Assembly (NCBI RefSeq): GCF_007747445.1
Contig: NZ_CP036425.1
Location: forward strand, 3,456,175-3,520,174
DNA from: Poriferisphaera corsica
GTDB taxonomy: Bacteria; Planctomycetota; Phycisphaerae; Phycisphaerales; Phycisphaeraceae
DNA: 64,000 nt
Direction of reading: 5' to 3'
Part shown: piece after piece, positions 4,460 to 55,950 of the stretch
How the letters are laid out: each line of letters starts with the position of its first letter
Numbering within the stretch: the first letter of the stretch is position 1
The notes under the pieces: model-generated
Databases searched by the model: none
What the model was told of the DNA's origin: nothing
The model's input: the letters and a program-made list of their open reading frames with translations, nothing else
Position numbers and translations under genes: made by a program

Positions 4460-5148
4460 GCATTTTGCCCTCAATCATGTATTACGAATACTCAATGATA
4501 AGACGAAATGACCCGTTAACAATTTCAGTCAATCCCTTCCCCATCAACCAACCTGCCCATTCAAATCTAGTGCGCTCACATCACGCTGATCTTCAACCAA
4601 AATTTCCAGCCACCTCTAAATCTCCAAAATTGAAACTGAATCGCATTCATACATGCGCGACGGATTTTGGCGCACAAGAATTTTCTAAAGCGCGCATCCG
4701 TGCGCAAAATCACTTGCGGATAAGCACTTGTTTTTTCCAATCACTTCCCAAAACGGACAAAAATTCATTCATTTTCATTCCAAACGTGCGCTTTCTAGCT
4801 GATTTCTGACCTTTTCTGATTTCTATGTTAACTATCTATTGATGAGTTAGTTGCGCTAATAACCAACTCTCAGAGATGCTTTTGTGCGCTCTTGGAAGTT
4901 TTATCATTTTTGCTTAACCGCTGAACAAACCGCGCGCACGCGCTCTTCCAACTGCTGAACATTTCGCGCGCACAATCCCATCACCCCCCCCATTCCCCGC
5001 CCACGTCGCTCCCCCCTACCTCATCCCCCCACTACCTCGCCCACTCCTTACCTCGCCCACTCCTTACCTCGCTCCCCCTTACTTGCTCCCCAACAAAATT
5101 TATCCCACATGATCGGCTATCAACCGAGTTGAAATTGAGTCACATTCA
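4460..5148. other. long AT-rich intergenic region with GCGC-motif cluster and C-rich tract
   Basis: No plausible gene. Bases 4655-4976 hold at least seven copies of a GCGCAC/GTGCGC core in otherwise AT-rich DNA, for example GCGCACAA at 4670, GTGCGCAAAA at 4700, TTTTGTGCGC at 4880, CGCGCGCACG at 4931 and CGCGCGCACAAT at 4965. Bases 4980-5090 are a C-rich, almost G-free tract. The same core recurs at 44796-45101. It may be a multi-site protein-binding region; its role is unknown. Confidence 0.5.
5033..5080. repeat. short tandem repeat, 16-nt unit, 2 full copies plus a diverged third
   Basis: Unit TACCTCGCCCACTCCT occurs perfectly at 5033-5048 and 5049-5064, followed by a diverged copy beginning TACCTCGCTCCCCCT. 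It lies inside a pyrimidine-rich tract. Confidence 0.8.
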
Positions 5149-5182
5149 CATAAAAAGCCCGTCGCTAATTGCCACGGGCTTT
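5149..5182 (-). terminator. Rho-independent terminator downstream of hisF
   Basis: The 9-bp stem AAAGCCCGT/ACGGGCTTT (5154-5162 with 5174-5182) is followed on the minus strand by TTTTTA. It lies about 175 nt beyond the hisF stop. Confidence 0.75.
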
Positions 5183-5355
5183 CGTTCGTCTCTAGTTTTC
5201 GTTCAGATCTTAAGCCCCTGCCGACTGATCTGAAAATCACTTGTAACAATCCCGCTTAAGCTAGACTTCCAATCAATCCACCCACCAATGATCTGATGAA
5301 AAGCTGATAGCCCGAAAAGCGACGACTCAATGTGCTGAACGTGTCAGCTAAAAGC

Positions 5356-6195
5356 TTAATTCGCAACAGGTTCGAGCATTCGCATCGGCAAGCCGGCTTT
5401 CGCCAAATATTCTTTGGTTTCTTGAATCGTGTACTCGCCGTAGTGGAAGATGCTCGCTGCAAGTGCAGCATCTGCACGGGTTTCCGTCAACACCTGACGC
5501 ATATGCTCTGGGCTGCCGCAGCCGCCCGAGGCAACGACCGGCACATTCACCGCGTCCGCGATGAGCTTCGTAATCTCAATGTCATACCCGTCCTTCGTGC
5601 CGTCACCGTCCATACTCGTGAGGATGATTTCACCCGCACCAAGCTCGACGACCTGCTTTGCAAACGCCACTGGGTCCAGGCCGGTCGGCTTGCGCCCGCC
5701 GTGGGTGTGGATTTCAAACCCATATCCGGGCTTGATTGTGGACTCAACAGGGCTGTCCGTATTTTTGCATCGCGCACGTAACTCGTTCATTGGAACGCGT
5801 TTAGGATCGATGTTAACGACCGTTGCACAGCGGCCGAAACGCTGAGCGGTTAATTTGACGATATTGGGATCGAAGACCGCTGCTGTATTGATGCTGACCT
5901 TTTCTGCGCCGGCCTGAATCAGGCGGGTCACATCGTCGATCGTACGAATACCGCCGCCAACAGTGAAAGGCATAAAGCATTGCTCAGCAACACGTTGCAC
6001 CATATCTAGCGTGATATCCCGTCCCTCATGAGTGGCCGTGATATCCAAAAAAACCAGCTCATCGGCGCCCTGTTCATCGTACTTCTTAGCCACTTCCACA
6101 GGATCACCCGCGTCACGCAACTGCACGAAGTTGACGCCCTTTACAACTCGCCCTTCATTCACATCCAGGCACGGAATAATTCGGTTCGTAATCAT
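5356..6195 (-). CDS. hisF: imidazole glycerol phosphate synthase subunit HisF
   Basis: Cyclase subunit of IGP synthase. With HisH it converts PRFAR and glutamine-derived ammonia to imidazole glycerol phosphate and AICAR in cytoplasmic histidine biosynthesis. Starting at the second ATG (6195, preceded by GGTGAG) puts the two catalytic aspartates of the (beta/alpha)8 barrel at exactly D11 (PCLDV) and D130 (VVNID), the usual family numbers; an ATG at 6207 would add four residues. Phosphate-binding VGGGIR (79-84) and VASGGCG are present. At 279 aa it is about 25 residues longer than typical HisF because of an insertion after D130, before [10 protein letters not shown]. No other his gene is nearby. 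Confidence 0.95.
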
Positions 6196-28613: not shown

Positions 28614-29302
28614 GCTCTCTCTTTTGCTTTGTGGCTATCGATTATCTCTATTTCTCTTCGATGATCCGCATCAGCGATCTTACCTCTTGTTAAGAATGGG
28701 CTTACAGTAGCAACCTCATTTTAAGCAGAGACAAGGAAACAATATTCTGGTCAGTAATCAGCACGCTGGCAAGTCATAGCCCCCAGAATTTTGAACCTCG
28801 AACATGCAACTCACTCTCAACAATATGCCAAATATAGATACGACGCATGGATTGCCTATCTCCCCTAATCCATGCGAATTGCTAAACATATGTTAGAAAT
28901 GGCCTTAAATTCACATGAATAGTCACATTTCCCGGAACACGGGTGGTTTACAACTCGTAGATATGGATAATAGTTATCATAGTTAAGTGTGTGAGTCCTA
29001 TCTGTCATTGGGATGCTTAATCACCCTCAGTAAAAGTTTAAATTAGAATTAGAGCAACCGCTTTTATTTGCCGAGAAAGTCAGGGACAGCAGACATCCTG
29101 CTGGGCAGACTTGTAAGTGAATGGCATGCTCAAGAGCAGAGAAATCTCTTTTGGTCATTAAATCTTAAACATTTTTTACTTACTTGGTCACAAGATTCAT
29201 GTGCGTTAATCTGGGTTATTTATTAAGATAGACGCACATATCCAAGGGGTGTTTCAGTTACCCACGTGGACGCACAGAGTCAGGAACAGCCGATTCAGGA
29301 GC
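28614..29302. other. long divergent intergenic region before the exopolysaccharide/exosortase locus
   Basis: 690 bases without a gene. It contains GGATAAT-A-GTTATCA (28965-28979), a near match to the 7-1-7 Fur-type palindrome, and CCCGGAACACGGG followed by TGGTTTACAAC (28931-28954), whose right part resembles the 3' flank of the 36-nt repeats. No certain promoter was found. The length suggests regulated expression of the locus. Confidence 0.45.
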
Positions 29303-42369: not shown

Positions 42370-42399
42370 ATCCCCTCCATATTTCAAACCAAGCGAAAC

Positions 42400-42435
42400 A
42401 AGCCCATGACCGCCGGTCATGGGGTGTCTTACAAT
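42400..42435 (+). repeat. 36-nt palindromic repeat, copy A
   Basis: Begins AAGCCC, contains ACC-GCC-GGT at its centre and ends GGGTGTCTTACAAT. A 9-bp perfect stem (positions 4-12 with 16-24) has a 3-nt loop. It lies 30 nt after the stop of the WecA-like gene. Confidence 0.75.
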
Positions 42436-42659
42436 TCATTCCCCTCTGCCTGCAACCAATCTTCACGATCCGCTCAAATCCGCATACCGTAATCCTTATT
42501 ACCCCCCGCATAAAGACCCATGCTGCTCGCAACATGACCCCTTCCTCTTTCATCTTGAAAATCAGCCTGTCGCAATAGTCATACTCCAATCATTAAGACG
42601 CCCCTTTACGCCTCAATATCCCATCATTCACTTTGGCACACCGTTTGTACTATCTCATT

Positions 42660-43034
42660 CTGTGAGATGACTTCTATGTATCCCACACCTAGGATTTAGC
42701 AGTATCGAAAACGGTACAAAAGTAGATTACGTAATGCATCGCAAGGCTTGATACAACATCAGCCGCAGTAGGCGTACAACAACGCGTTAACCAAACGCCA
42801 ACAACCTACTATTCAACGCATAGGCATTCACGTAATCGCTTTTAGAAACTTGAAATTCCAGCAGGCTCGCAGCCCTTTTTCTGATAGCGGACGAAGCTAG
42901 CACGCTCGCAGTCAGCCGCTACGTACACCACGCGAGTGTACCTAACGGGCTAGATAACTGGCTACTTCAACCTGCTGTGTAGATAGATCAAACAGGCTCG
43001 TTGTATCCAAACAGTACACCGAGCCTGTTTTTTC
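42660..43034 (+). ncRNA. candidate structured non-coding RNA ending in an intrinsic terminator
   Basis: No gene lies upstream that the terminator at 42991-43034 could serve; the nearest stop is 620 nt away. The segment contains hairpins GTACAC/GTGTAC (42923-42941) and an outer pair AGCGG/CCGCT, and GCTCGCAG twice. It does not match tmRNA, RNase P, 6S or SRP RNA signatures that I checked by eye. The 5' end is not determined. Confidence 0.3.
42991..43034 (+). terminator. Rho-independent terminator without an obvious gene
   Basis: The 10-bp perfect stem AACAGGCTCG/CGAGCCTGTT (42991-43000 with 43020-43029) is followed by TTTTTC. Confidence 0.85.
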
Positions 43035-43140
43035 TTGCGCCCTTCCCCCCCTGTTTCGTCTCATCAAATTTCCAAACCCACCCCTGACATCCCGCGCAAC
43101 AATCATCCGAACGAACGACTCAATGTATATCAATCCCCAC

Positions 43141-43176
43141 AAGCTCACGACCGTCGGTTGTGGGGTGTACTACAAC
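43141..43176 (+). repeat. 36-nt palindromic repeat, copy B
   Basis: Ungapped match to copy A at 28 of 36 positions, with the GACCG-T-CGGT centre and GGGGTGT tail. The stem is kept by a T-A to C-G double change and wobble pairs. Confidence 0.75.
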
Positions 43177-43320
43177 CCAACAATCCCTCGCCCTCAATCT
43201 CAATATTGACTTCATATCTAACCAGCCAATAGGCGGGATCACACCACAATCACCGTATATCTTTCCCCCCTCAAAATTCCCCAGCCATCAAACCGCCATT
43301 CCCACGCATTTCCAACACTA

Positions 43321-43445
43321 GAGCAAGTTGCGTGATTATCTGGAACATCCGATTATTCAGAATTCAGCAGCCAACTCTTGTAATAGGTACCCTTTACGAA
43401 ACGACCCTTTGGTCAACGATTCAGGTAATTTCGCAAAACGCTCTA
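43321..43445. repeat. imperfect inverted repeat (about 125 bp element) carrying the 18-nt dispersed repeat
   Basis: The left end (TAGAGC...TTGCG..ATTA.CTG) and the reverse complement of the right end agree at about 21 of 29 positions. The right end is ATTTCGCAAAACGCTCTA (43428-43445), identical to 6307-6324. It may be a small non-autonomous element or a decayed binding site; there is no transposase. Confidence 0.45.
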
Positions 43446-43811
43446 ACCACTCGCACTTTCCTTCTTTTCTCCCCACACCGGCGGATTCAAAATCTGCAAC
43501 ACCAACAACGCAATCACAACAAACGGCAACGACAGCAAATACGTAATCGAAATCACACCACTAAAAAACCCCGTCACAAAAACCAACAACACCAAATACA
43601 ACAACACACTCCCCAACACCACCAGCCACAACTTGCCCATAAACTGAATCCGCGGCGCCCACACCAATCCACACTCACTACACTCCCTCACACCCAATGG
43701 ATGATTATGGTTGTATTGCTTCTTCGTATGCATCGCCGTCTTCGTTCCGCATTTCGGACAAAGCTCACCCGTATGCCGATCCCGTCTTGGCCCATCATTC
43801 ATTTCATTCAT
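43443..43811 (-). CDS. zinc-ribbon membrane protein, 122 aa
   Basis: The N-terminal cytoplasmic part contains a four-cysteine zinc ribbon, CPKCGTKTAMH...CSECGLVW (about residues 18-51). Two membrane helices follow: FMGKLWLVVLGSVLLYLVLLVFV (58-80) and ISITYLLSLPFVVIALLVLQIL (about 86-108). The domain order resembles the other zinc-ribbon membrane proteins in this window. It is divergent from the MOSC gene with 111 nt between starts. No function is known; related small proteins are common in planctomycetes. Confidence 0.7.
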   Translation of the reverse strand: MNEMNDGPRRDRHTGELCPKCGTKTAMHTKKQYNHNHPLGVRECSECGLVWAPRIQFMGKLWLVVLGSVLLYLVLLVFVTGFFSGVISITYLLSLPFVVIALLVLQILNPPVWGEKKESASG

Positions 43812-43910
43812 AACAACACAAGCTCCATATTCCCTACCCCCTTCTACTTATCCCAACACAGTATCCACCTCGTGCAACAAATTGCCATACTGATACAACT
43901 CCCTTCATCA

Positions 43911-43922
43911 TATAATCATTTC
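43911..43922 (+). promoter_or_regulatory. -10 element giving a candidate leaderless mRNA for the MOSC gene
   Basis: A perfect TATAAT (43911-43916) ends 6 nt before the ATG at 43923, and no Shine-Dalgarno precedes it. Transcription would start at or next to the A of the ATG. No good -35 is seen at normal spacing (TTGCCA is 23 nt away). Confidence 0.5.
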
Positions 43923-44669
43923 ATGCCTGTTCACTTTCAACAACAATCTGCACAACTCCTCGCCATCTTCGTCGGCAAACCCACCACCAAAGGCTCCAAC
44001 TCCGCAACCATATGGCACGATAAACCTTGGACCTCCGCCATCCACAAGCAGCCCGTCAACCAAACCATCCAACTCAACGAAAACAACCTCCTCGGCGACG
44101 CGCAAGCCGACCTCAAAAACCACGGCGGCCCCCATCGCGCACTCCTAATCTACCCCGCCGATCACTACCCATACTGGCGCAAACAACTCAACCTCCCCAC
44201 ACTCCCCTACGGCGCCTTCGGCGAAAACCTCACCATCCCCCACTTCACCGAATCACGCGTCCACATCGGCGACACCTTCACCCTCGGCTCAACCATCATC
44301 CAAGCATCTCAACCCCGACCACCCTGCTGGAAACTCGCTCGCCGCTGGAAAATCAAAAACCTCGCCATACAAGTCCAAAACACCGGCTTCGCCGGCTGGT
44401 ACGCCCGCGTCCTACAAACCGGAACCATCTCCCCATCCGACACTCTCACACTCATCGATCGCCCCTGCCCCGACTGGTCAATCGACACCATCGCCCGCCT
44501 CAAATACGACTCCACCCCCAACCGCCCCGAATACGCCCAGCTCGCCGACTGCCCCCATCTCCCCCCATACCTTCGTGATCGCTTCGCAAAAAAGCACACA
44601 TCCCCCGCACACTCTCTCCACCACAACCACGACACCACCCCTCGCACCCACGGCCCAAACATCGACTAA
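43923..44669 (+). CDS. MOSC domain protein (YiiM-like), 248 aa
   Basis: Start at ATG 43923; the open frame continues 590 nt upstream but that part is low-complexity and antisense to the zinc-ribbon gene. MOSC domain features: LLAIFVGKPTT (start), LLGDAQADLKNHGGPHRALLIYPADHYPYW, YGAFGENLTIPHF, HIGDTFTLGSTIIQASQPRPPCWKLARRW with the invariant Cys, and TGFAGWYARVLQTG. YiiM-type MOSC proteins carry a molybdenum cofactor and reduce N-hydroxylated compounds such as 6-hydroxylaminopurine. The basic His/Thr-rich tail after about residue 220 is unusual. The gene is extremely C-rich (44521-44580: 31 C, 9 G). Confidence 0.9.
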   Translation: MPVHFQQQSAQLLAIFVGKPTTKGSNSATIWHDKPWTSAIHKQPVNQTIQLNENNLLGDAQADLKNHGGPHRALLIYPADHYPYWRKQLNLPTLPYGAFGENLTIPHFTESRVHIGDTFTLGSTIIQASQPRPPCWKLARRWKIKNLAIQVQNTGFAGWYARVLQTGTISPSDTLTLIDRPCPDWSIDTIARLKYDSTPNRPEYAQLADCPHLPPYLRDRFAKKHTSPAHSLHHNHDTTPRTHGPNID

Positions 44670-45140
44670 CCTCCCCATCCCCATCCGCCTTCATTCCCCC
44701 CCTAATCCTCCCAATGATTCGCCCCATACCACTTTCCATCGAATACATCCCATCTCCCAATTCTTTCTCCGATCAGCCACCTTCTCACGCCAATCCGCGC
44801 GCACAAAACCAAAAATCTCACCAATTTACCCCCAATTTCTCACCATTTTTCATCCAAAGCTGCCCGATTCGTGTCCAAAACGCGCGAATTCCACCCCATA
44901 ATTGACCTCATTGACACCCGCAAACACCCATTTCACCAAAAACGCGCGCACAAACGCACCGCTCATCCACTTCAAACCCGCCTCATCTCCGATCAAGCAA
45001 AACATTTTTAACATTAACAACCTCTTATTTAACTATTTCAATCATTTAGCCTTTTGATTTTCTAACCCATTTTCACTTTTTGATTTTTCATTTTGTGCGC
45101 GTTCATCACGCCCCCCTCCTCTTCAATTCGCCCCCCCTCA
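44670..45140. other. AT-rich intergenic region with the second GCGC-motif cluster
   Basis: About 470 bases with no gene. CGCGCGCACAAA occurs at 44796 and again at 44943; CGCGCG at 44881; TTTTGTGCGCG at 45091. Between the motifs the DNA is strongly AT-rich (44999-45095). It mirrors the cluster at 4655-4976. Confidence 0.5.
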
Positions 45141-45142
45141 AG

Positions 45143-45431
45143 TTGCAGCCCACGTCCTGACTGCTACAATTAGCGTTCGGCCAATGCCTCGCGGCAGCGG
45201 CTGTCATTGCTGTTAATAGGCATGGATTGCATATTAACCGGCTCAATAACATTGTTTTGGATGATCGGCAGACCGATTCAAACCCTTCTTTAGGACGTGC
45301 ATGATGCCATCCCAAGGGTACTCGGCCGCGATCTTTTAACCTTATAACGCCCTTATTTACCCGGTAGCACAGGTTAATCAGCTCCATATAAGTAAGCTGA
45401 TTGCGAGGGCCCCTACCAAGGAGTTTTTTAG
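45143..45431 (+). promoter_or_regulatory. promoter and structured leader of rpsB
   Basis: TTGCAG (45143-45148), 16-nt spacer and TACAAT (45165-45170) predict a start near 45177 and a leader of about 255 nt. Next to the gene, GGTAG (45363-45367) pairs with CTACC (45413-45417) around a perfect 8-bp hairpin AATCAGCT/AGCTGATT (45376-45383 with 45395-45402). The AAGGAG ribosome site follows directly (45418-45423). This fits an autoregulatory ribosomal-protein leader, but is not shown. Confidence 0.55.
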
Positions 45432-46310
45432 ATGGCATCACTCGTCAAGGATCTCGTCGAAGCAGGCGTCCATTTCGGACACCGTGCAACGCACTGGAAC
45501 CCAAAAATGGCGCCGTACATCTACGGCAAGCGTAACAAGATCCATATCATCGACGTCAAGGAAACCATCAAAGGTCTTCTTCTCGCTCGTAAATTCATCA
45601 CCAAAACCGTTTCCTCCGGCAGAGACGTCCTCTTCGTAGGTACCAAGCGTCAAGCTCGCGGTTCACTTCAGAAGCACGTCAGCGATGTCGAAATGCACTG
45701 GGTCACTGAACGTTGGCTCGGCGGCACGCTCACCAACTTCCGTACCATCCGTGAGCGTCTGAAACGTCTCGAAGAACTCGAGCGTATCGAAGAGTCAGGC
45801 GACATCGCGAACTACTCCAAGAAAATGGAGTCACAGCTTCGCCGTGAGAAATCAAAGATCCTTCGCAACCTCGAAGGTATCCGTAACATGAACAAGCTGC
45901 CCGGCGCGATGATCGTCATCGACCCAAGCACCGAGCACAACGCAGTCAAGGAAGCCCGCAAACTTGGCATCCCAACGATCTGCCTCATCGACACCGACAG
46001 CGATCCAGATTACGCAGACATCCCCATCCCGGGTAACGATGATGCGATGCGTGCGATCGAAGTGGTTGTCACTTCACTTTGTGCAGCAGTCGCGGAAGGC
46101 AAGAGCAACCGCGTCGCTCAGAAGGAAGGCAAAGATTCGGGCGATGCTCCGAAGCCACGCCGCCGCTCAAACCGTGCACAGTTCTCAGCATCTGCTTCTG
46201 GCGACAAGCCTGCTGAAGCAAAGCCAGTTGAGGCAAAGCCGGTCGAAGAGAAGCCAGTTGAAGCGAAGCCTGCGGAAGCAGCACCTGCACCAGCTGAAAA
46301 AGCTGAATAA
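45432..46310 (+). CDS. rpsB: 30S ribosomal protein S2
   Basis: 292 aa. The S2 core (residues 1-230) has [65 protein letters not shown] and [14 protein letters not shown]...[11 protein letters not shown]. It binds late to the 30S body and is needed for S1 docking. The last about 60 residues are a Pro/Ala/Glu/Lys repeat tail ([20 protein letters not shown]), beyond the usual 240-255 aa. AAGGAG lies 8 nt before the ATG. It is followed by tsf, the standard rpsB-tsf order, but an intrinsic terminator separates them. Confidence 0.98.
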
Positions 46311-46324
46311 TCAACGACACATAC

Positions 46325-46356
46325 AATCCGGTTGCCCAATGGCAGCCGGATTTGTT
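46325..46356 (+). terminator. Rho-independent terminator between rpsB and tsf
   Basis: Stem AATCCGG/CCGGATT with inner GCC/GGC (46325-46352), followed by TGTTTA. The moderate T run may allow partial read-through into tsf. Confidence 0.65.
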
Positions 46357-46583
46357 TACCCCACCCCCCCTATTTTCCACTCACCCCCTCCTATCATCCC
46401 CACACCCACATCTCCGCATCCTCTGAAAAACTCAGTTGATTGCGAGCATCAGCTTTAATGACACGATGCGGGCAAGCTCACAAACTCATCACAACAACAC
46501 CGTACAATCAATTCGGCCATTGCATTCTGCAAGGCCGATGACATGAACAAGAATCCAACCTCGTTTTCTCCAAGGAGATTACC

Positions 46584-47387
46584 ATGGCGACAATCACCGC
46601 CAAGGACGTAATGGCACTCCGCAAGGCTTCTGGCCTGGGTATGATGGAAGCCAAGAAAGCCCTCACCGAAACCAACGGCGACATGGAAGCAGCCAAAGAA
46701 CTGCTCCGTAAAAAGGGTTTAGCCAAGATGGACGGTCGTACCGACCGCGAGTCTGCTGAAGGCAAAATCGCAATCGCTGTCGAAGGCAGCAAGGGCGCGA
46801 TCGTCCTCGTGAACACTGAAACCGACTTCACCGCAAACAACGATATGTTCATCGAAAAAGTGCAGATCATTGCGAATGAAGCACTCAAGAACGACGCTGG
46901 CGAAGTGGTCGTTAACGATTCAATGCAAACATTGATCGACGACATCCGCGTCACGACCAAAGAGAACGCACAGTTCGGCAAAGGCAAAGTCCTTGGCGGC
47001 GGCAACGCAACCATCGGCTCATACCTTCACTTCACCGGCAAGATCGGCGTCCTCGTCGAACTTGAAGGCGAAGCATCCGACGATTTGCTCAAAGATCTCT
47101 GCATGCACATCTCCGCGATCAGCCCTGCCCCGCTTGGCGTGAACGAAGACGAGATTCCTGCGGACATCATCGAGAAGGAACGCGAAATTGCGAAGGCACA
47201 AGCGATTGAGTCTGGCAAGCCAGAAGCGATTGCTGAGAAAATGGTCGAAGGCAAGATCCGCAAGTACTTGGACGAAGTCACACTGACACGTCAGAAGTTC
47301 GTCAAAGACGACAAGAAGCAGATCAAGGATATCCTTCCTGCTGGCGTGAGCATCAAGCAGTTCGTTCGCTACCAGATCGGCGGCTAA
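46584..47387 (+). CDS. tsf: elongation factor Ts
   Basis: 267 aa. The N-terminal UBA-like domain (ITAKDVMALRKASGLGMMEAKKALTETNGDMEAAKELLRKKG, residues 4-45) and the core with ETDFTANNDMF (the TDFVA-type motif contacting EF-Tu) are clear. The C-terminus has LTRQKFVKDDKKQIKDIL. It exchanges GDP for GTP on EF-Tu in the cytoplasm. CAAGGAG precedes the ATG with good spacing. A probable own promoter lies in the 270-nt gap (TACAAT at 46502). Confidence 0.98.
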   Translation: MATITAKDVMALRKASGLGMMEAKKALTETNGDMEAAKELLRKKGLAKMDGRTDRESAEGKIAIAVEGSKGAIVLVNTETDFTANNDMFIEKVQIIANEALKNDAGEVVVNDSMQTLIDDIRVTTKENAQFGKGKVLGGGNATIGSYLHFTGKIGVLVELEGEASDDLLKDLCMHISAISPAPLGVNEDEIPADIIEKEREIAKAQAIESGKPEAIAEKMVEGKIRKYLDEVTLTRQKFVKDDKKQIKDILPAGVSIKQFVRYQIGG

Positions 47388-47414
47388 GACCGACTGATAT
47401 GACATAAAATTAAC

Positions 47415-47443
47415 AGCCCGTGCATGTTTGCACGGGCTTTTTT
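47415..47443 (+). terminator. Rho-independent terminator of tsf
   Basis: The 10-bp perfect stem AGCCCGTGCA/TGCACGGGCT (47415-47424 with 47429-47438) is followed by TTTTT. Confidence 0.92.
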
Positions 47444-47503
47444 AGTTGTAAGCTAGAAAATGTAAAAATGTGCATTTATATCGCGACAATTCATTAAATC
47501 GTA

Positions 47504-47537
47504 TTGCATTCTTCTGAAATTTAAGCAAGATTCCTGT
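47504..47537 (+). promoter_or_regulatory. promoter of the acyltransferase gene, possibly leaderless
   Basis: TTGCAT (47504-47509), a 16-nt spacer and CAAGAT (47526-47531, weak) end 6 nt before the ATG at 47538. There is no Shine-Dalgarno. Confidence 0.4.
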
Positions 47538-48752
47538 ATGCCAGAGACCGTTGCCGCGACCCCGGCCAATATCCCAACAACCAGCACAGCGACCAAGTCA
47601 CTCACGATCAATATCGTCCGAGCGATTGGCGCGTTGGTTGTCTTGATACACCATGCGAATGGGTATTTTCTGCGAGCTGAGCCAACTTACGATACTGCAT
47701 GGCAAGGGATTTCGCGCGTAACAACGACTTATGGTTGGACTGGCGTGACTTTGTTTTTTGTGATTAGTGGACTGTGCATTCATTTACCCCAAGCCAGGTC
47801 ACAAGCTACAAAATTGAATCTAAAAAAGTACACGATCCGTAGACTGGTCCGGCTGTATCCGACATATTTCATCGTGTGTTTCGGTTTGATTGGTATGTTG
47901 ATGTTGAATAACCAATTCCAAGGCGGAATCAAATCGATCATCGGCCATGTGTTTTTGTGGTACAACGAGTTTAATCCGGTGAAAGGTGAATCGTATAGTG
48001 TTGGGCCGTTCTGGTCATTGGCGGCGGAGATTCATCTATATTTTCTTTATGCGATTTGTTACCCATTGATCGTACGGCTTGGTGTTAAGCGGGTCACTCA
48101 GGTGACATTGGGTGTAACGATTATCTACTATGTCGCGCATCATTTTCTTTTTCTGTCTGGTTCTGAATTACCAAGCTATATACAGCCGCGTGATTTTGCG
48201 GTGGCGCGTTTCGGGGAATGGATGCTGGGCGCATATCTTGCGGAATTATGGTGTACGAAGAAGCTGAGTTACCAAACGCTGCCTTTGATCAAAAACAGTA
48301 AACAATTATTAATCCTATCTATTGGTTTGATTGCTGTTCCGATCGCATTGAGTGAGATATGGCGTGATCAATTTTATGTCTATATCATCAATATTCCGAT
48401 TGCGATAGCCTCGTTTTATTTAATCGCTTATTTGCTGATCCGAGAAGACGAGAATCGCGGGGCAAGCAGAAAGGGGCTGAAGCATTTCACGGTACATCTC
48501 TTAGATAAGATTGGTGATCGTTCTTACAGTTTGTATTTAATCCATCTTGCAGTGATCTCCATTGTGGGCCGCATTATTTTTACAAAGGTTTTGAAGATCC
48601 AGGACATTGATGCGTATGCGGGTTCATTTTCATTATTTGCGGTCACCATATTGGGTATTGCGGTCTCGTTTTTGTTAACTGAATTGCTCTACCAATTGGT
48701 TGAGAAACCATCGCACAAACTGGCTCGCCGTTTAACTCGGCCTACGAAATAG
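47538..48752 (+). CDS. acyltransferase 3 family membrane protein (OafA-like), 404 aa
   Basis: About ten membrane helices. Family motifs: RAIGALVVLIHHANGYFL (the conserved His of helix 1 region), FFVISGLCIHLP, KYTIRRLVRLYPTYFIVC, and GPFWSLAAEIHLYFLYAICYP; the C-terminus has GDRSYSLYLIHLAVI. These enzymes O-acetylate or otherwise acylate extracellular sugars at the cytoplasmic membrane. It stands alone between tsf and the lipoprotein pair. The acceptor may be envelope or exopolysaccharide sugars, which is inference. No Shine-Dalgarno is seen; see the promoter entry. Confidence 0.92.
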   Translation: MPETVAATPANIPTTSTATKSLTINIVRAIGALVVLIHHANGYFLRAEPTYDTAWQGISRVTTTYGWTGVTLFFVISGLCIHLPQARSQATKLNLKKYTIRRLVRLYPTYFIVCFGLIGMLMLNNQFQGGIKSIIGHVFLWYNEFNPVKGESYSVGPFWSLAAEIHLYFLYAICYPLIVRLGVKRVTQVTLGVTIIYYVAHHFLFLSGSELPSYIQPRDFAVARFGEWMLGAYLAELWCTKKLSYQTLPLIKNSKQLLILSIGLIAVPIALSEIWRDQFYVYIINIPIAIASFYLIAYLLIREDENRGASRKGLKHFTVHLLDKIGDRSYSLYLIHLAVISIVGRIIFTKVLKIQDIDAYAGSFSLFAVTILGIAVSFLLTELLYQLVEKPSHKLARRLTRPTK

Positions 48753-48821
48753 AGACCGCTCTCGGTATTTACATTTTTTGATGCATTCCTTATAACTATT
48801 ACAGCATACGATCAGGAGTGC

Positions 48822-49541
48822 ATGATGAGATTAAATCTAATTCTGGTGATCATTCTTATCGCTTTTGCAGGTGCGGGTTGTACGACATCGCATGGGATTG
48901 CGAAAAATGATGTGAAGTTTACGCAGGTGATGGCGGAAAATAAGACAAGTATCGGCTTGGTTAGCTATAGCGTAGCGCATGATGGGAATTATGAAGAGAA
49001 GCAGATGCTGCAGGCAAACGCGCGGACTGCTGAGCAAAATGGGGTGATTGGTTTGTTGGTTGGCATGGGCGTAGAAGCGACTATGAAGTGGAATATTCCT
49101 ACGGAAGAACAGAGGCATGCGGTACGGATACTGGACGAGAAAGTGAGACGGCAGCTTGTATCTAACCTAGGGATAGAGGTGCCGCCACTGCTTACGTATC
49201 AAGCAATCGCTCCGGCAAAGGGTTTGCATCAACGCAAAAAAATTAAGTATGCGATCACGGGACATCGGCTTGCGTCGGGGTTGGTGGTGGATTTCAGTTT
49301 CACACAGAAATATGTGAGCATGTTTGATTACGAATCGGTCGTGCGTGGCAAGTGGACGATTTATGATACGGACGGGAAAGCGAAGTTAGTGATTCATACA
49401 GAGAACATGTTGCCTGAAATGCATCGGGTGGAGGATACGCGGGAGATAGAGCATCATACGTACTACCTGAATACGATCCGTGAGGCGACGGAGGATTTTG
49501 CGATTTTCCTTTATGAGGCGCTGCAAGAGCAAAAAGAGTAG
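48822..49541 (+). CDS. lipoprotein, paralog 1 of a tandem pair (239 aa)
   Basis: AGGAG precedes the ATG. The signal peptide ends in a lipobox (AGAGC, Cys about residue 20), so the mature protein is lipid-anchored. The mature part begins TTSHGIAKNDVKFTQ, includes GHRLASGLVVDFSF and ends REATEDFAIFLYEAL. The downstream gene shares CT..HGIA.ND..FT, HRLA and EATEDFA at the same relative positions. It has no recognised domain. Predicted periplasm- or outer-membrane-facing; the function is unknown. Confidence 0.75.
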   Translation: MMRLNLILVIILIAFAGAGCTTSHGIAKNDVKFTQVMAENKTSIGLVSYSVAHDGNYEEKQMLQANARTAEQNGVIGLLVGMGVEATMKWNIPTEEQRHAVRILDEKVRRQLVSNLGIEVPPLLTYQAIAPAKGLHQRKKIKYAITGHRLASGLVVDFSFTQKYVSMFDYESVVRGKWTIYDTDGKAKLVIHTENMLPEMHRVEDTREIEHHTYYLNTIREATEDFAIFLYEALQEQKE

Positions 49542-49612
49542 GGTAAGTAAAGATGTGTGCGTTGAGGTGTGTGGAGAGGGGAGAGGGAGTGGTTGCATGC
49601 AAGTGACGAGAG

Positions 49613-49648
49613 ATTGCAAGACACCCTGCAACCGGCGGGCGCGGGCTT
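49613..49648 (-). repeat. 36-nt palindromic repeat, copy C (reverse orientation)
   Basis: Read on the minus strand it begins AAGCCC, has CCC-GCC-GGT at the centre and ends GGGTGTCTTGCAAT. It aligns without gaps to copy A. Seven of nine stem pairs remain, one by an A-T to G-C double change. It lies between the lipoprotein paralogs. Confidence 0.7.
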
Positions 49649-49745
49649 GAAGAATATATGGATATTGGTGTGTGTGGGGGGGATACTTATATCATGAAGG
49701 GATGGGGGGACGTACACTGATCTTGATTCTAGATCAGGAGATATC

Positions 49746-50459
49746 ATGTTGAAATCATGTCTATGGGTGTGCATTTGCTTGATGATGATTGGTATTGCTG
49801 GCTGCACGATGCCGCATGGGATTGCGGAGAACGATACGCAGTTTACGAGGCCGCTATTGACGAAAAAGTCGCCGATATCGTTGGCGAATGTGACGATTCT
49901 GCATGCGGGCGATCCGGAGACGAATGATATTTATGGTGTGCATACATCAAGACAGGCGAAGAAGTTGGCGGCGGGGGGGGCATCAAATTTAGTGGATATG
50001 AATGACAATCGGCCGACGTCTGGACAGGCCGAGGCGATGGGCGTGCTGGATGATCGGATGGTGATGCAGATGCGTGAAGAATTGTCGACTCAGCTTGGGC
50101 CAATGGTGACGTATCGGCAAGCGATCCCGACGGTGCATGATGAGAATCCGCAGCATGTGCAGCAATTTATCCAGCGACATCGGCTGGCAGCTGCGATTGA
50201 TGTGAAGATTACGATGATGTTCCAAGCATTATTAGGAGGCGAAGCAAAGCCTGCGATACGGACTGAATGGCGGCTGATTGATCCTGAGAGTGAGGTCAGG
50301 CTGGCGATCAATACGCTGACGATGTTGCGGGTTGATGAGAAAGTTGGGGATACACGCGATGAGTCGCATCATGCGGCATATTTGGCAGCGGTAAGCGAAG
50401 CGACGGAAGATTTTGCGGTATATTTTTACCAGGCGATGACACCGCCAAGAGTGAAGTAG
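49746..50459 (+). CDS. lipoprotein, paralog 2 of a tandem pair (237 aa)
   Basis: ATCAGGAG precedes the ATG. Lipobox GIAGC (Cys about residue 20), then TMPHGIAENDTQFTR, a middle region with QAEAMGVLDDRMVMQMREEL, HRLAAAIDVKITMM and a C-terminal SEATEDFAVYFYQAM. These landmarks match the previous gene, so the pair arose by duplication. The two copies are separated by about 200 nt containing a palindromic repeat. Function unknown. Confidence 0.75.
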   Translation: MLKSCLWVCICLMMIGIAGCTMPHGIAENDTQFTRPLLTKKSPISLANVTILHAGDPETNDIYGVHTSRQAKKLAAGGASNLVDMNDNRPTSGQAEAMGVLDDRMVMQMREELSTQLGPMVTYRQAIPTVHDENPQHVQQFIQRHRLAAAIDVKITMMFQALLGGEAKPAIRTEWRLIDPESEVRLAINTLTMLRVDEKVGDTRDESHHAAYLAAVSEATEDFAVYFYQAMTPPRVK

Positions 50460-50805
50460 GCGAAGCGTGATTATTGGGACAGAGAAAGACCCCACCAGTA
50501 CAATATTCGTACAGCCATACCGGTACAGTTAAAATTATATAATGATTATAGGTATAATTGTTCCCTTTAAAGCTAGTTTTGAGCTTGTTGCGAAGTATTT
50601 TCATCTCTTTTTGAATTATACTGCTTTTACGTGTTTCGCATTATGCTGCATTTAAACAGGCGTATGTTGGGCAAGTTACGGCGAGTTATCAAAGATTGGG
50701 ATTGCTCGAAAAACAGATTTCAGCCTGACAAACGTCTATTAGATGCGGCAAATAGCCGAAACATGCCAATAACATCAGTTTGAATCAGAAGAAGAGGTGG
50801 ATCAG
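50460..50805. other. intergenic region upstream of ilvE
   Basis: 346 bases. TATAAT occurs at 50538 and 50553 in an AT-rich stretch, without a convincing -35. No repeat or gene was found. Confidence 0.4.
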
Positions 50806-51783
50806 ATGATCACACAATCCCCCCCGGAAGTGGCTTGCTCGGCGCCGGAGCTTGGCGGTGTACAAAGCCGTGAGGCGGTTTCGGCCGATACGTGTAACGT
50901 GACACGACAGATTTGGCTAAATGGGAAGCTTGTGCCGGCGGATCAGGCGACTGTATCGGTTTACGATCATGGTCTGCTATATGGGGATGGCGTGTTTGAA
51001 GGAATACGGCTATACAACGGGCGGGTATTCAAGGCGGGGACGCATTTGAAGCGGCTGTATGAGTCGGCGCACTCGATCCGGCTGGAGATCCCGTACACGC
51101 TAGAAGAGTTGGACGCAGCGACGCGACAGACAGCTGATGCGAATGGGCAGCGGGATGGGTACGTGCGGCTGTGCGTGACGAGAGGTGCGGGGACGCTTGG
51201 GATTCATCCGTTTAAGGAATGCAAGCCGAACGTGTTTATTATCGTTGATAAGATTTCGGTGTATCCGGCGGAGTTGTATGAAACTGGGTTGGAGATCATC
51301 ACGGCATCAACGATTCGGAATCATCCATGCGCGCTGTCGCCACGCATTAAGTCGATGAACTATCTAAATAATGTACTGGCAAAGATTGAGGCGATTGATG
51401 CGGGTGTATTGGAAGCGGTGATGCTAAATCATGAGGGGTTTGTGGCGGAATGCACTGCGGACAACTTGTTTGTGGTGCGAGAGTATTTGGGCGAGTTAAC
51501 GCTGATCACGCCGCCTTCGAGTGCTGGGATCTTAGAAGGGGTGACGCGGAACGAGATCATCAAGCTTGCGAAGAAGTTGGGGATTGCGTTTCGTGAGGAG
51601 AACCTGACGAAGCATGATTTGTACACGTCAGGGGAAATTTTCTTAACGGGTACGGCGGCAGAAGTCATACCGGTCACGAAAATCGATAACCGAGTGATTG
51701 GGGGAGGTGAGCCGGGCGAGATGACGTTGCGGTTGCGTGAGGCGTTTCAGTCGCTTGTGGCTGAAGATGCCCCTGAGGATTAA
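50806..51783 (+). CDS. ilvE: branched-chain amino acid aminotransferase
   Basis: ATG 50806 has AGAGGTGG at good spacing; a GTG three codons earlier is inside that site. A 30-residue N-terminal extension precedes the fold. Class IV PLP aminotransferase motifs: IWLNGKLVPADQATVSVYDHGLLYGDGVFEGIRLY, the PLP lysine Lys182 (SPRIKSMNYLNN), LNHEGFVAECTADNLFVV and GEIFLTGTAAEVIPV. It transfers the amino group between glutamate and the keto acids of Leu, Ile and Val. Some class IV relatives act on D-alanine; the FEGIRLY and TGTAAE forms favour IlvE. Confidence 0.92.
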   Translation: MITQSPPEVACSAPELGGVQSREAVSADTCNVTRQIWLNGKLVPADQATVSVYDHGLLYGDGVFEGIRLYNGRVFKAGTHLKRLYESAHSIRLEIPYTLEELDAATRQTADANGQRDGYVRLCVTRGAGTLGIHPFKECKPNVFIIVDKISVYPAELYETGLEIITASTIRNHPCALSPRIKSMNYLNNVLAKIEAIDAGVLEAVMLNHEGFVAECTADNLFVVREYLGELTLITPPSSAGILEGVTRNEIIKLAKKLGIAFREENLTKHDLYTSGEIFLTGTAAEVIPVTKIDNRVIGGGEPGEMTLRLREAFQSLVAEDAPED

Positions 51784-51817
51784 ATCAGGGAAAAACAAGT
51801 ATAAATACCTCTAAGCG

Positions 51818-51846
51818 CCCACACTCTACGCGTGTGGGTTCTTTTT
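51818..51846 (+). terminator. Rho-independent terminator of ilvE
   Basis: The 7-bp stem CCCACAC/GTGTGGG (51818-51824 with 51832-51838) is followed by TTCTTTTT. It lies immediately before the truD -10 element. Confidence 0.8.
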
Positions 51847-51847
51847 A

Positions 51848-51859
51848 TACAATGTGTGC
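51848..51859 (+). promoter_or_regulatory. -10 element giving a candidate leaderless mRNA for truD
   Basis: TACAAT (51848-51853) ends 6 nt before the ATG at 51860, with no Shine-Dalgarno. The ilvE terminator occupies the space where a -35 would be, so no good -35 is present. Confidence 0.4.
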
Positions 51860-53134
51860 ATGAATGAGTCATACAAGAAAAGTCCGTTGCCTGAACCGTG
51901 TTATCTGACGGCTGATATTGAGGGGACAGGGGGCGTGATTAAGCAGCGGCCAGAGGATTTTTTGGTTGAGGAGTTGCCGCTGTATGAGGCAGGTGGCGAG
52001 GGGGAGCATGTGTATTTGTTTATTGAGAAGCGCGAGATGACGACGCTGGATGTGGCGAGGCGGATTGCGCGGGCGTTTCATGTGCGGAAGTCGGATGTGG
52101 GGTATGCGGGGTTGAAGGATAAGTATGCGATCACACGCCAACACTTTTCTGTGTATCTGCCTAAGACGGGGACGGAGGATGAGGGGTTACAAAATTTACT
52201 GCTGCATAAGAATATGACACTGCTTTGGCATGATCGGCATTTGAATAAACTGCGGAGAGGACATCATGGGGGGAACCGGTTTGTGGTGCGGATTAGAGAT
52301 ATTGAGATTTCGGCGATCATGCGGGCTAAGAAAGCGTTGGATGTGCTATTGAAGCAAGGCGTGCCGAACCGGTTTGGGATGCAGCGGTTTGGGTACCGGA
52401 ACAATTCGCATACGCTGGGGTACCTGCTTTTGACGAAGCAGTATGAGGCGTTTATGGATGAGATGCTGGGGTATGGGACGGAGCTGGATACGGAGCAGTT
52501 GCGTGTGGCGAGAGGGCATTATCGGGACGGGGATTTGGATGCGGCGATTGAGGCGTGGCCGAAGGCGCTACGGTTCGATCGGCAATTGGTAGATAATCTG
52601 CGGCAAGGGAAGTCGGCGGAACGTGCGGTGTTGGCGGTGGATTCGACACAACTCAATTTGCTGATATCGGCGGTGCAGTCGGCGGCGTTTAATGATGTGG
52701 TGGAGCGACGTGTAGGTGATGGCACGTTTAATCGGTTGATGGCTGGTGATTTGGCGTTTATTCATGGGAACCGCGCGGTATTTGCGGTGGATGAAGCAAC
52801 GGCGGCACTAGAAAATGGTGAAGGTGGCCGAATTAGCTCGTTTGAGATTTCGCCGTCCGGGCCAATGTGGGGGGCCAATATGACTCAGGCGGAAGGTGTG
52901 GTTGGGGAATTAGAACTCGAAGCGCTGAATAGACAGCAATTGACGCCGGAACAGATGGTGGCGCATGACCGGAAGATTTCAATTGATGGGGCGAGAAGGC
53001 CGCTGCGTATTGAGATGAAAAATCTGGATATGGATGGCGGTTGCGATGAGCATGGGAATTATATTCGTTTGGCTTTTGACTTGCCGCGTGGCGCGTTTGC
53101 GACGAATATTTTAGATGAGATTATGAAAATATAA
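51860..53134 (+). CDS. truD: tRNA pseudouridine(13) synthase
   Basis: 424 aa from the ATG (a GTG two codons earlier is possible). TruD-family landmarks: IKQRPEDFLVEELPLYEAGGEGEHVYLFIEKR at the N-terminus, the catalytic Asp87 in GYAGLKDKYAITRQHFSV, then KLRRGHHGGNRFVVRIRD and NRFGMQRFGYRNNSHTLG. The TRUD insertion domain occupies the middle. It converts U13 of certain tRNAs to pseudouridine. A methyltransferase gene follows by 28 nt. The gene is strongly G-rich (52501-52560: 29 G, 10 C). Confidence 0.94.
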   Translation: MNESYKKSPLPEPCYLTADIEGTGGVIKQRPEDFLVEELPLYEAGGEGEHVYLFIEKREMTTLDVARRIARAFHVRKSDVGYAGLKDKYAITRQHFSVYLPKTGTEDEGLQNLLLHKNMTLLWHDRHLNKLRRGHHGGNRFVVRIRDIEISAIMRAKKALDVLLKQGVPNRFGMQRFGYRNNSHTLGYLLLTKQYEAFMDEMLGYGTELDTEQLRVARGHYRDGDLDAAIEAWPKALRFDRQLVDNLRQGKSAERAVLAVDSTQLNLLISAVQSAAFNDVVERRVGDGTFNRLMAGDLAFIHGNRAVFAVDEATAALENGEGGRISSFEISPSGPMWGANMTQAEGVVGELELEALNRQQLTPEQMVAHDRKISIDGARRPLRIEMKNLDMDGGCDEHGNYIRLAFDLPRGAFATNILDEIMKI

Positions 53135-53162
53135 CTCATCATATTGATCCGGAGTCTTTGAC

Positions 53163-53924
53163 ATGGCAAAAACGAATGAAGTGCCAGCATACTGTGCGCA
53201 TGAGGGGGTGTATCGACAGATTGAGGCGAAGGAATCCAAGACGTGGAATGAGCATATTGGGCAGCCTGCGATCGAGAAGGCGTATGTTCGATTTCTGGAT
53301 GATCTTTGTGAGGACGGAGTGATTCATGAGCCTAAGCGTCTATTAGAGCTTGGGTGCGGTACGGGGCAATTACTGCGATATTTATGCGGGCGGTTTGGAA
53401 GTTTGGGGCATGGGATTGATGTGAGCAAGACAGCGATTAAGCTGGCGAAAGCGCAGACGGACGTTAAGGGGATTACGTTTCAGACGGGGGACGTGACGGA
53501 TTTAGCGGCGAAACATGCGGGGAAATATGATCTGGTGGTAGATGGGCTATGCTTGCACTGCTTGACGGATGAGGAGGATCGGGACGCTTTTATTGAGTCT
53601 GTTCATGAGGCACTTACTAAGGAGGGGATTGGGATTATTTATACGATGGCAACGCCGATATTGCGGAAAGAATTCCAAGAGCAGTTTGGGAAGCTGTATG
53701 GGAAACGGACTTATTTTGTGACGGCGGATGCGGACAAGTATTCGGATGCGGAAGTGATTGATGGACAACTACAGATTCCGACTCGTTATTTCGAGCATTA
53801 CAAGAACATCATGAAGAGTTTGGTAGATCATGGTTTGCTGCCGATGGCGTTTCGTGTGAAATTGCCAACAGAGAGCAAACCGCTGACACATTTAGCGGTG
53901 GCGGTGAAGAAGGTTGAGTTGTAG
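53163..53924 (+). CDS. class I SAM-dependent methyltransferase, 253 aa
   Basis: CGGAG precedes the ATG at good spacing. The Rossmann methyltransferase core has motif I LLELGCGTGQLLRYL (about residues 59-73), motif II GHGIDVSKTAIKLAK, TGDVTDL, and motif IV YDLVVDGLCLHCLTDEEDR followed by ALTKEGIGIIYTM. The C-terminal part (RYFEHYKNIMKSLVDHGLLPM) is typical of small-molecule methyltransferases. The substrate is not evident. Close spacing to truD suggests cotranscription, though the functions need not be linked. Confidence 0.88.
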   Translation: MAKTNEVPAYCAHEGVYRQIEAKESKTWNEHIGQPAIEKAYVRFLDDLCEDGVIHEPKRLLELGCGTGQLLRYLCGRFGSLGHGIDVSKTAIKLAKAQTDVKGITFQTGDVTDLAAKHAGKYDLVVDGLCLHCLTDEEDRDAFIESVHEALTKEGIGIIYTMATPILRKEFQEQFGKLYGKRTYFVTADADKYSDAEVIDGQLQIPTRYFEHYKNIMKSLVDHGLLPMAFRVKLPTESKPLTHLAVAVKKVEL

Positions 53925-54004
53925 TCGATTGACTGTGCGTGTGTATACAGAAGAAAAAGAAAAAGAGGGGAAGTGAAGGCGGCTGAGGGGGAAGGAGGGG
54001 GGGA

Positions 54005-54631
54005 TTAAGCGTGGATCTGAATTTGTGTTTCGAGGGGCATGGCGGGGAGAGATGCATCGCGGGCGTTGATGAGTGTGACGGACTGAAGGTTACGGATAGC
54101 CTCGGGGAACTTGCCATCAACGAGGCCGATGGCGGCGGCAGCTTCGGGGCAGCCGAGCGGTTCGTCGGGGAGCGTTGATTTGAGGAGGGTGAGACGCGGG
54201 GCATTTAGTTGAGCTGCGATATGAGCTGAGATGGAATCGCTGGTGAATTGCCAACAATGTTCGACAGGGAAGCCGTGGATTTCTTCGTACTCTAACCAAG
54301 CAATAGGCTCAACGATGGCGAGACGATTGTTCTGCCAAACAGGGGCGCATTCATTGATGTTGTGAACAAGGATGGCGTTATTCAGGATTTCTGCGAGCAG
54401 GTAGGCGTTGAGGGACATGCCTCGGACAGCAAGCCAGTGGGCACGTTGCTCGTCGAGGCCGAAGTTTTTGTCGATGATTCGGACTGCGTCTGCGGAACGC
54501 GCGCCGCCAACGACGAGAAGGAAGTTCGTATCGTTCGTCGTTGCGATGAATTGTTCGAGCACATGGAGTAGTTGGGGAAAATCAAGAAGACTTCCGCCGA
54601 CTTTGAGAACGTGTACATCTTTACAACTCAT
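54005..54631 (-). CDS. amino acid kinase-fold protein, 208 aa
   Basis: N-terminal KVGGSLLDFPQLL is the phosphate-binding start of the amino acid kinase fold (aspartokinase/UMP kinase). FLLVVGGARSADAVRIIDKNFGLD and FTSDSISAHIAAQLNAPRLTLLKST complete the ATP and substrate regions. At 208 aa it is shorter than aspartokinase or UMP kinase and similar to MfnE-like kinases of methanofuran synthesis, some of which occur in planctomycetes with C1-transfer genes. That link is suggestive only; no other C1 gene besides the folate cyclo-ligase is nearby. Confidence 0.75.
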   Translation of the reverse strand: MSCKDVHVLKVGGSLLDFPQLLHVLEQFIATTNDTNFLLVVGGARSADAVRIIDKNFGLDEQRAHWLAVRGMSLNAYLLAEILNNAILVHNINECAPVWQNNRLAIVEPIAWLEYEEIHGFPVEHCWQFTSDSISAHIAAQLNAPRLTLLKSTLPDEPLGCPEAAAAIGLVDGKFPEAIRNLQSVTLINARDASLPAMPLETQIQIHA

Positions 54632-54717
54632 GGAACTGCCTAACTGAAAACTTCTAAGTTTGATCGTTTAACTATCGCGCATTTTCAAACTTGTTGTTTG
54701 TGATTTCTGATCGCATC

Positions 54718-54753
54718 TATTCCAAACACCCTGTCACCGGCGGTGGCAGGCTT
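54718..54753 (-). repeat. 36-nt palindromic repeat, copy D (reverse orientation)
   Basis: Read on the minus strand it begins AAGCCT, has CACC-GCC-GGTG at the centre and GACAGGGTGTTTGGAAT after it. Eight of nine stem pairs are kept, two by compensatory double changes (G-C to C-G, C-G to T-A) relative to copy A. Confidence 0.7.
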
Positions 54754-54893
54754 GAAGAAAAACGTGCATCTCAATGTGACTTGTATAACTGCTGATTAGC
54801 CACAAAAGCGAAAGGGCGCGTGATTGATACGGTTGGTGAGGTGTTGTGGTTCGATGGGGAGGGATGAGAGTGGGGTGGGGTATGGGGGGGGGA

Positions 54894-55550: not shown

Positions 55551-55950
55551 CCTATTTTACCGCATTGAGCGAGATCTCTCATCCTGGAGGGCTGAAATGT
55601 GGCAATGATAGGGAGAAAATCGAGCATATCATTTGAATCTATATCGGCTGAGATCATTTACGTGGGCTGTGAGAAGCCCCCCGCATCGGTGGTACTGGGG
55701 TTGTAGCAATGGGCTATGAGTAATGAGGTCTGAGAGGACAGGGGCGGATTGATATCAGGGGCAATTCCTGCAACAATACCGCATCCCATCCCCCCGGAAG
55801 CCCCGGGAGGTGGACAGCTTGCATGCTGGCCATGAATGGAGATTGATGGGATGTGGTGGTCTTCATTATGGAGACGGGTGGGTGAAATTATTTTTAAGAC
55901 TGACAATGAGGGCCGATGCCCGCGAAATACACTCAGGAGTTTATGACCTC
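55551..55950. other. intergenic region upstream of efp
   Basis: 400 bases. At 55674-55710 there is a degenerate relative of the 36-nt repeat (AAGCCC...GGTACTGGGGTTGTAGCAAT). A GC-rich hairpin CCCCGGAAGCCCCGGGG-like stem lies near 55793-55812. The divergent promoters of the cyclo-ligase and efp should be here. Confidence 0.4.

What the first reader, a model, noticed from the sequence alone, without database searches (positions are those of the whole stretch)
42400..54753. 36-nt palindromic repeat family with compensatory stem changes
Four intergenic copies (42400 and 43141 on plus; 49613 and 54718 on minus) align without gaps. Each has a 9-bp stem, a 3-nt loop and a GGGTGT-type 3' flank. Stem positions differ between copies in matched pairs (T-A to C-G, A-T to G-C, G-C to C-G, C-G to T-A), which indicates selection on the hairpin. 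Weaker relatives may lie at 55674-55710 and 28931-28954. They occur in both orientations, like REP-type elements, and do not look like terminators because no T run follows.
Basis: seen in the sequence. Interest (0 to 1): 0.7.

Follow-up and report, generated by a model that had tools for sequence, protein, structure and literature searches.

The report
Strand-locked hairpin repeats marking skew jumps
These repeats are copies of a small mobile hairpin, probably spread by an enzyme encoded in the same marine bacterium, and nearly all examined copies point toward sharp, origin-like jumps in strand composition that recur along its chromosome.

Summary
The four copies are real and belong to a large family: 74 exact and 162 near copies (up to 3 mismatches; control 0) in a 4.29-Mb genome that matches Poriferisphaera corsica KS4 in length. 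Stem pairing is kept through matched changes. One Y1/HUH transposase gene (P0001; predicted fold like ISDra2, IS608 and E. coli RAYT) has an inverted pair of copies behind it, and 12 of 29 examined homologues in relatives have hairpins of the same design beside them (AAG foot, CCC base, mostly 9-bp stem). So this is a REP/RAYT-type system with an AAG foot, not GTAG or CGTC.

Unexpected: in the two regions read, GC skew forms a sawtooth, falling slowly and jumping up about every 37 kb, whatever the gene direction. 113 of 115 scorable copies lie on the C-rich strand; 46 of 47 point toward the nearest jump. The sister species shows the sawtooth in 400 kb without any copy there, so the repeats record the asymmetry rather than cause it. 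I infer strand-specific insertion into single-stranded DNA. The cause of the sawtooth is unknown; many origin-like sites is the boldest reading not excluded.

The parts
42399..42427 (+). repeat copy, core; perfect 9-bp stem CCCATGACC/GGTCATGGG, loop GCC, 5' foot CAAG, 3' GTGT
42428..42457 (+). weakly conserved 3' tail of this copy
43140..43168 (+). repeat copy, core; two G-T wobbles in the stem
43169..43198 (+). 3' tail of this copy
49621..49649 (-). repeat copy, core; three imperfect pairs
49591..49620 (-). 3' tail of this copy
54726..54754 (-). repeat copy, core; one C-A pair
54696..54725 (-). 3' tail of this copy
46137..47137 (.). upward GC-skew jump, best estimate near 46637 (G000 3502811), at rpsB-tsf (names by my reading); all four copies point toward it
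4787..5787 (.). second upward GC-skew jump, best estimate near 5287 (G000 3461461); no copy beside it in the window

Best explanation
The repeat is the short non-autonomous partner of a REP/RAYT-type system. A Y1 HUH transposase (P0001, G000:C1:3329508-3330047, outside the window) recognises a single-stranded hairpin with an AAG foot, CCC stem base, 9-bp stem and 3-nt loop, and moves or copies it into other intergenic sites. Shown: family size, covariation, the gene with its own pair of copies, hairpins of the same design beside part of its homologues, conserved catalytic residues and predicted fold, and the fixed local orientation. Inferred: that P0001 moves these copies, that insertion is into single-stranded DNA of one polarity, and that the process exposing this strand also leaves the sawtooth composition. 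The sawtooth itself does not need the repeats.
For: 74 exact and 162 near copies, control 0. 96.0% of cells paired against 80.2% in shuffles, covariation score 0.433 against 0.124, 0 of 500 shuffles as high for either. Y1_Tnp hit with copies at 3330060(+) and 3330115(-) just behind the gene. H99, H101, W144, Y165 invariant in 25 homologues. AlphaFold2 pLDDT 88.8; Foldseek best hits ISDra2, IS200/IS608 and E. coli RAYT 4er8. AAG-foot hairpins 2.25 per kb near homologue genes against 0.08 per kb far away, 15 of 29 loci, 12 with an AAGCC foot by my reading. Hairpin-rich genomes have a homologue more often: 25 of 31 against 21 of 70, p 3e-6. Orientation: 113 of 115 on the C-rich strand, 46 of 47 toward the nearest upward jump, with copy density rising with skew strength. 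Sister genome has the sawtooth without copies in the stretch read.
Against: No movement or cleavage was shown. 17 of 29 homologue loci have no AAGCC hairpin by the scan used, 6 of 31 hairpin-rich genomes lack a detected homologue and 21 of 70 others have one. P0001 barely passes Pfam Y1_Tnp (23.1 bits, cut-off 23), fails NCBIfam REP_Tyr_transpos (17.5, cut-off 80) and finds no PDB sequence. Strand logic is open: if jumps are origins, the exposed lagging-strand template would be the G/T-rich strand, yet the AAG foot lies 5' of the hairpin on the C-rich strand, so the transferred strand may be the complement. One member of the P0001 pair breaks the orientation rule.
Confidence: 0.75

Rival explanations
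1. The orientation comes from a target-sequence preference: the enzyme inserts into C/A-rich or pyrimidine-rich single strands, so copies follow composition directly and say nothing about replication or exposure.
For: Copy density rises with skew strength; T at -1 and C or T at -3 are preferred.
Against: 113 of 115 is extreme for a short target motif, but I did not model what a motif alone would give.
Confidence: 0.25
2. The repeats are polar functional sites of chromosome biology (comparable to Chi, KOPS or pause sites; names recalled), kept by selection around the skew jumps.
For: 46 of 47 point to the nearest jump and 57% lie within 5 kb, against 26% for uniform positions.
Against: The sister genome has jumps and no copy in 400 kb and only 2 in the whole genome; in my reading several P. 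corsica jumps have no copy nearby.
Confidence: 0.1
3. The hairpin works as RNA, as a transcript-end stabiliser or terminator behind genes.
For: 41 of 56 tandem copies are sense and copies are enriched between convergent genes; a simple scan lists the reverse strand of 42399 as terminator-like.
Against: G-T and A-C mismatches are about equal; antisense and divergent copies keep the same composition-bound orientation; of the four window copies the scan lists only this one, and 19 such sites were found against 13.8 in shuffles.
Confidence: 0.08

Closest known systems
REP elements with RAYT/TnpA_REP (GTAG superfamily)
   Same: Short palindrome in many intergenic copies, unpaired foot 5' of the stem, transposase gene with copies beside it, HUH/Y1 fold
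   Different: Foot is CAAG (AAG in homologues), not GTAG or CGTC; nearly all copies single; orientation bound to local skew
TnpA_Y1 class 3 of Quentin et al. (PMC6006769)
   Same: Planctomycetes, about 180 aa, W[TA], atypical hairpins beside the gene
   Different: Y motif is YIxxH, not YV..EQ; foot is AAG, not CnGA
IS200/IS605 elements (IS608, ISDra2)
   Same: Fold; published strand-specific insertion at forks
   Different: No full IS found here; copies carry no gene
Replication skew domains of human DNA (N-domains; shape recalled, only listing of PMC4729899 seen)
   Same: Abrupt upward skew jumps with slow decline between them
   Different: Bacterial chromosome, about 37-kb spacing, on top of a large-scale trend; origins not shown

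Membership tests
REP element | short palindrome, many dispersed, mainly intergenic copies | tested here: met
   162 copies; 5 of 118 in called genes, 5 at stretch edges
GTAG or CGTC REP superfamily | GTAG or CGTC motif at one end | tested here: not met
   CAAG and GTGT ends; definition from PMC3733652
RAYT / TnpA_REP | HUH and Tyr residues on a Y1 transposase fold | tested here: met
RAYT / TnpA_REP | gene flanked by copies of its own REP | tested here: met
   inverted pair behind the gene; a degenerate CAAGCCCC...GGGTGT without stem before it
RAYT / TnpA_REP | score over NCBIfam REP_Tyr_transpos cut-off | tested here: not met
   17.5 bits, cut-off 80
RAYT / TnpA_REP | cleaves single-stranded REP | not testable with these tools
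   needs the protein
REPIN | inverted doublet as the unit | tested here: not met
   of 118 copies, neighbours within 2 kb: 26 pairs same strand, 1 inverted, the one at P0001
TnpA_Y1 class 3 | Y motif YV[VI]xEQ and CnGA foot | tested here: not met
   its profile was not available

The most novel reading that the evidence does not exclude
The Poriferisphaera chromosome has on the order of 100 origin-like sites (extrapolated from 22 jumps in 856 kb), from which strand-asymmetric DNA synthesis spreads both ways in addition to ordinary oriC replication, and the repeats are strand-specific insertions that report its direction.
Probability: 0.3. Interest if true: 0.95.

Novelty: new variant of a known kind. 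Interest (0 to 1): 0.78.

Why it matters
It points to a REP/transposase group with an AAG foot, with at least 5 pattern hits in 31 of 101 genomes searched. It also supplies natural marks of strand polarity that coincide with a sawtooth composition pattern which my searches did not find described in bacteria, and makes local DNA synthesis or strand exposure testable in a cultured organism.

Tried and rejected
Rfam search of the window at gathering scores: no match. PDB sequence search with P0001 up to E 1: none. Genome-contig scan with P0001: no relative confirmed; the further scan then allowed was not used. Replichore as the cause of polarity: not supported, since both orientations occur in most 0.3-Mb bins while local skew predicts orientation. 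Gene direction as the cause of skew: rejected, since GC3 skew of neighbouring genes correlates 0.85 for same-strand (128) and opposite-strand (66) pairs and intergenic DNA alone shows the jump. Repeats as the cause of the sawtooth: rejected. Missing DnaA: rejected. A long-loop variant has two copies. What lies at jumps: genes within 1 kb are better conserved (13 orthologues, median identity 90%, against medians of 70-77% further off), while distances to gene starts and ends are near random values; no motif search was done. Limits: gene calls are my own dicodon caller, not annotation. The 118 copies examined singly come mainly from low-mismatch listings; the 47 copies of the two contiguous regions are free of that bias. 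Jumps were called at a change of 0.4 between 4-kb halves; downward changes that large also occur, at 42 of 8964, 69 of 7840 and, in the sister, 223 of 7840 scan positions.

Full report
Observation. The pattern CAAGCNNNNNACCGCCGGTNNNNGGGTGT (up to 3 mismatches) finds the four reported copies in the window and nothing else; 100 shuffles give none. The covariance model finds the same four; the suggested weak copy at 55675 has E 0.56 and nothing is reported at 28931. Only one of the four stems is perfect.

Genome and family size. The window is G000:C1:3456175-3520174 of a 4,291,168-base contig, the published length of Poriferisphaera corsica KS4 (PMC7783415, passages). G001 has 5,234,020 bases, the published length of P. 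heterotrophicis ZRK32 (PMC10945688, passages; ANIb 72.89% there). The names rest on these lengths. G000 has 74 exact copies and 162 with up to 3 mismatches (88 on +, 74 on -), against 0 for the reversed pattern. The model search scored 150 candidates and reports 150 matches, so 150 may be a cap. At up to 2 mismatches G000 has 152, G001 has 2, three of the other 99 genomes have one each, and the reversed pattern has one.

Structure. In 118 copies (up to 3 mismatches, in fetched stretches) the commonest perfect stems are CCCACGACC 25, CCTGCCACC 18, CCCGCCACC 13, CCCATGACC 12 and CCCCGCACC 9. At the four pairs the pattern leaves free, 281 of 296 cells are Watson-Crick in the 74 exact copies; 2000 shuffles average 148, maximum 182. 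Over 59 distinct copies the structure beats 500 of 500 shuffles in cells paired, cells with double changes and covariation score; further pair types are reached by 3 of 500, and the number of pairs with a change on both sides (4) is no higher than in shuffles. G-T and A-C mismatches are 18 and 19 cells. A ~30-nt tail and T at -1 are conserved.

Transposase. Pfam Y1_Tnp has two hits in G000, a partial one at 580601 and P0001. P0001 is followed by an inverted pair of copies with 26 nt between them. In 25 aligned homologues H99, H101, W144 and Y165 are invariant and H169 nearly so. The model matches ISDra2, IS608 and 4er8, TM-scores 0.41 to 0.48 by query length. Of 29 loci examined, one per relative genome, 15 have an AAG-foot hairpin within 300 bases and 12 an AAGCC foot by my reading, 11 of these with 9-bp stems and 3-4-nt loops; 43 near hits against 5 far ones, symmetric hairpins counting twice. 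AAGCCCAC N11 GTGGG occurs in 47 of 101 genomes, up to 218 hits, with up to 2 control hits in a genome; palindromic copies count twice. G001 has no P0001 homologue at E 1e-5 and one hit of that pattern.

Context. Of 118 copies 56 lie between tandem genes, 42 between convergent and 10 between divergent ones, 5 in called genes, 5 at stretch edges; sampled intergenic space is 60, 16 and 24% by length. In tandem spaces 41 of 56 are sense.

Strand polarity. On the copy's own strand, flanks 100-1400 bases away average GC skew -0.38 and -0.33. Three of the 118 copies lacked flank; of the other 115, 113 are C-rich on both sides (binomial 3e-31, copies not fully independent). Tandem antisense copies are 14 of 14, divergent 10 of 10, convergent 41 of 42, tandem sense 40 of 41. 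The exceptions are 1162269 (3' side +0.08) and 3330060, one of the P0001 pair. Both G001 copies are on the C-rich strand. The 29-mers are not C-rich (1286 G, 1169 C).

Sawtooth. In 456 kb and 400 kb of contiguous G000 the skew declines over tens of kb and then jumps up over about 2 kb; averages go from about -0.43 to +0.27 in one region and -0.33 to +0.46 in the other. There are 12 and 10 jumps, median spacing 37 kb. Of 47 copies (up to 4 mismatches) 46 point to the nearest jump; the other is a P0001 copy near the region edge. 57% are within 5 kb, against 26% of uniform positions. No copy lies at |skew| under 0.1, and density is 6.5-fold over intergenic background above 0.5 (6 copies). Means of -0.07 and +0.11 show a separate large-scale trend. 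The sister's 400 kb has 11 jumps and no copy. Four G000 jumps (3396051, 3423141, 3502811, 3578121) lie within 1.4 kb of a sister jump relative to the same orthologue; others are offset or have no counterpart above threshold. Of eight other relatives, 100 kb each, G021 shows the sawtooth (largest upward change 0.46, downward 0.19), G038 and G039 are intermediate without such a difference, and G004, G007, G009, G031, G077 are flat.

Reading. A REP/RAYT-type system explains the repeats. Fixed polarity fits strand-specific single-strand insertion, as published for IS608-type enzymes (PMC6006769). But which strand is transferred is open, and a target preference is not excluded. The cause of the sawtooth is not shown.

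Literature seen. PMC6006769: abstract, passages, four sections. PMC3733652: abstract, passages, one section. PMC3116915 and PMC8266576: passages. PMC4403523: outline and one section, on putative double origins. No held paper has both 'GC skew' and 'sawtooth' or 'Phycisphaer' with 'extragenic palindrom'. Listings show no title or abstract start describing such a pattern in bacteria; these lists were partly capped and most subscription papers are not held.

Noticed in passing
G000:C1:420001-820000 and 3320001-3776174; G001:C1:1480001-1880000; G021:C18:200001-300000: Sawtooth GC skew with upward jumps about every 37 kb in both Poriferisphaera species, and two jumps in 100 kb of G021, another genus of the family.
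   Followed up: partly
G000 jumps near 3396051, 3461461, 3502811, 3536821, 3762771: Jumps fall at or beside housekeeping genes (by my reading ftsY, hisF, tsf, clpP, tpiA); genes within 1 kb are unusually conserved.
   Followed up: partly
G000:C1:844582-844618 and 4047779-4047815: Two copies with an 11-nt loop (C/T)TCCGGGGGCC in place of the 3-nt loop.
   Followed up: partly
G000:C1:723621-723936: Tandem array of copies with a period of about 72 bases.
   Followed up: no
G000:C1:573341-574683: Three antisense copies inside one called reading frame of 1161 codons that may be spurious.
   Followed up: no
G000:C1:361-837 and 230859-231335: Two DnaA-domain genes in G000 and in most of the 41 relatives searched.
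   Followed up: no
window 7383-7451 and 8375-8443: Two neighbouring genes end in similar sequence, PEP-CTERM-like by recall.
   Followed up: no
G000, regions 420001-820000 and 3320001-3776174: 14-mers of a CCCCCGGAA tandem repeat occur up to 11 times.
   Followed up: no
G000:C1:580601-580816: A second, short Y1_Tnp match in a 100-aa open frame.
   Followed up: no
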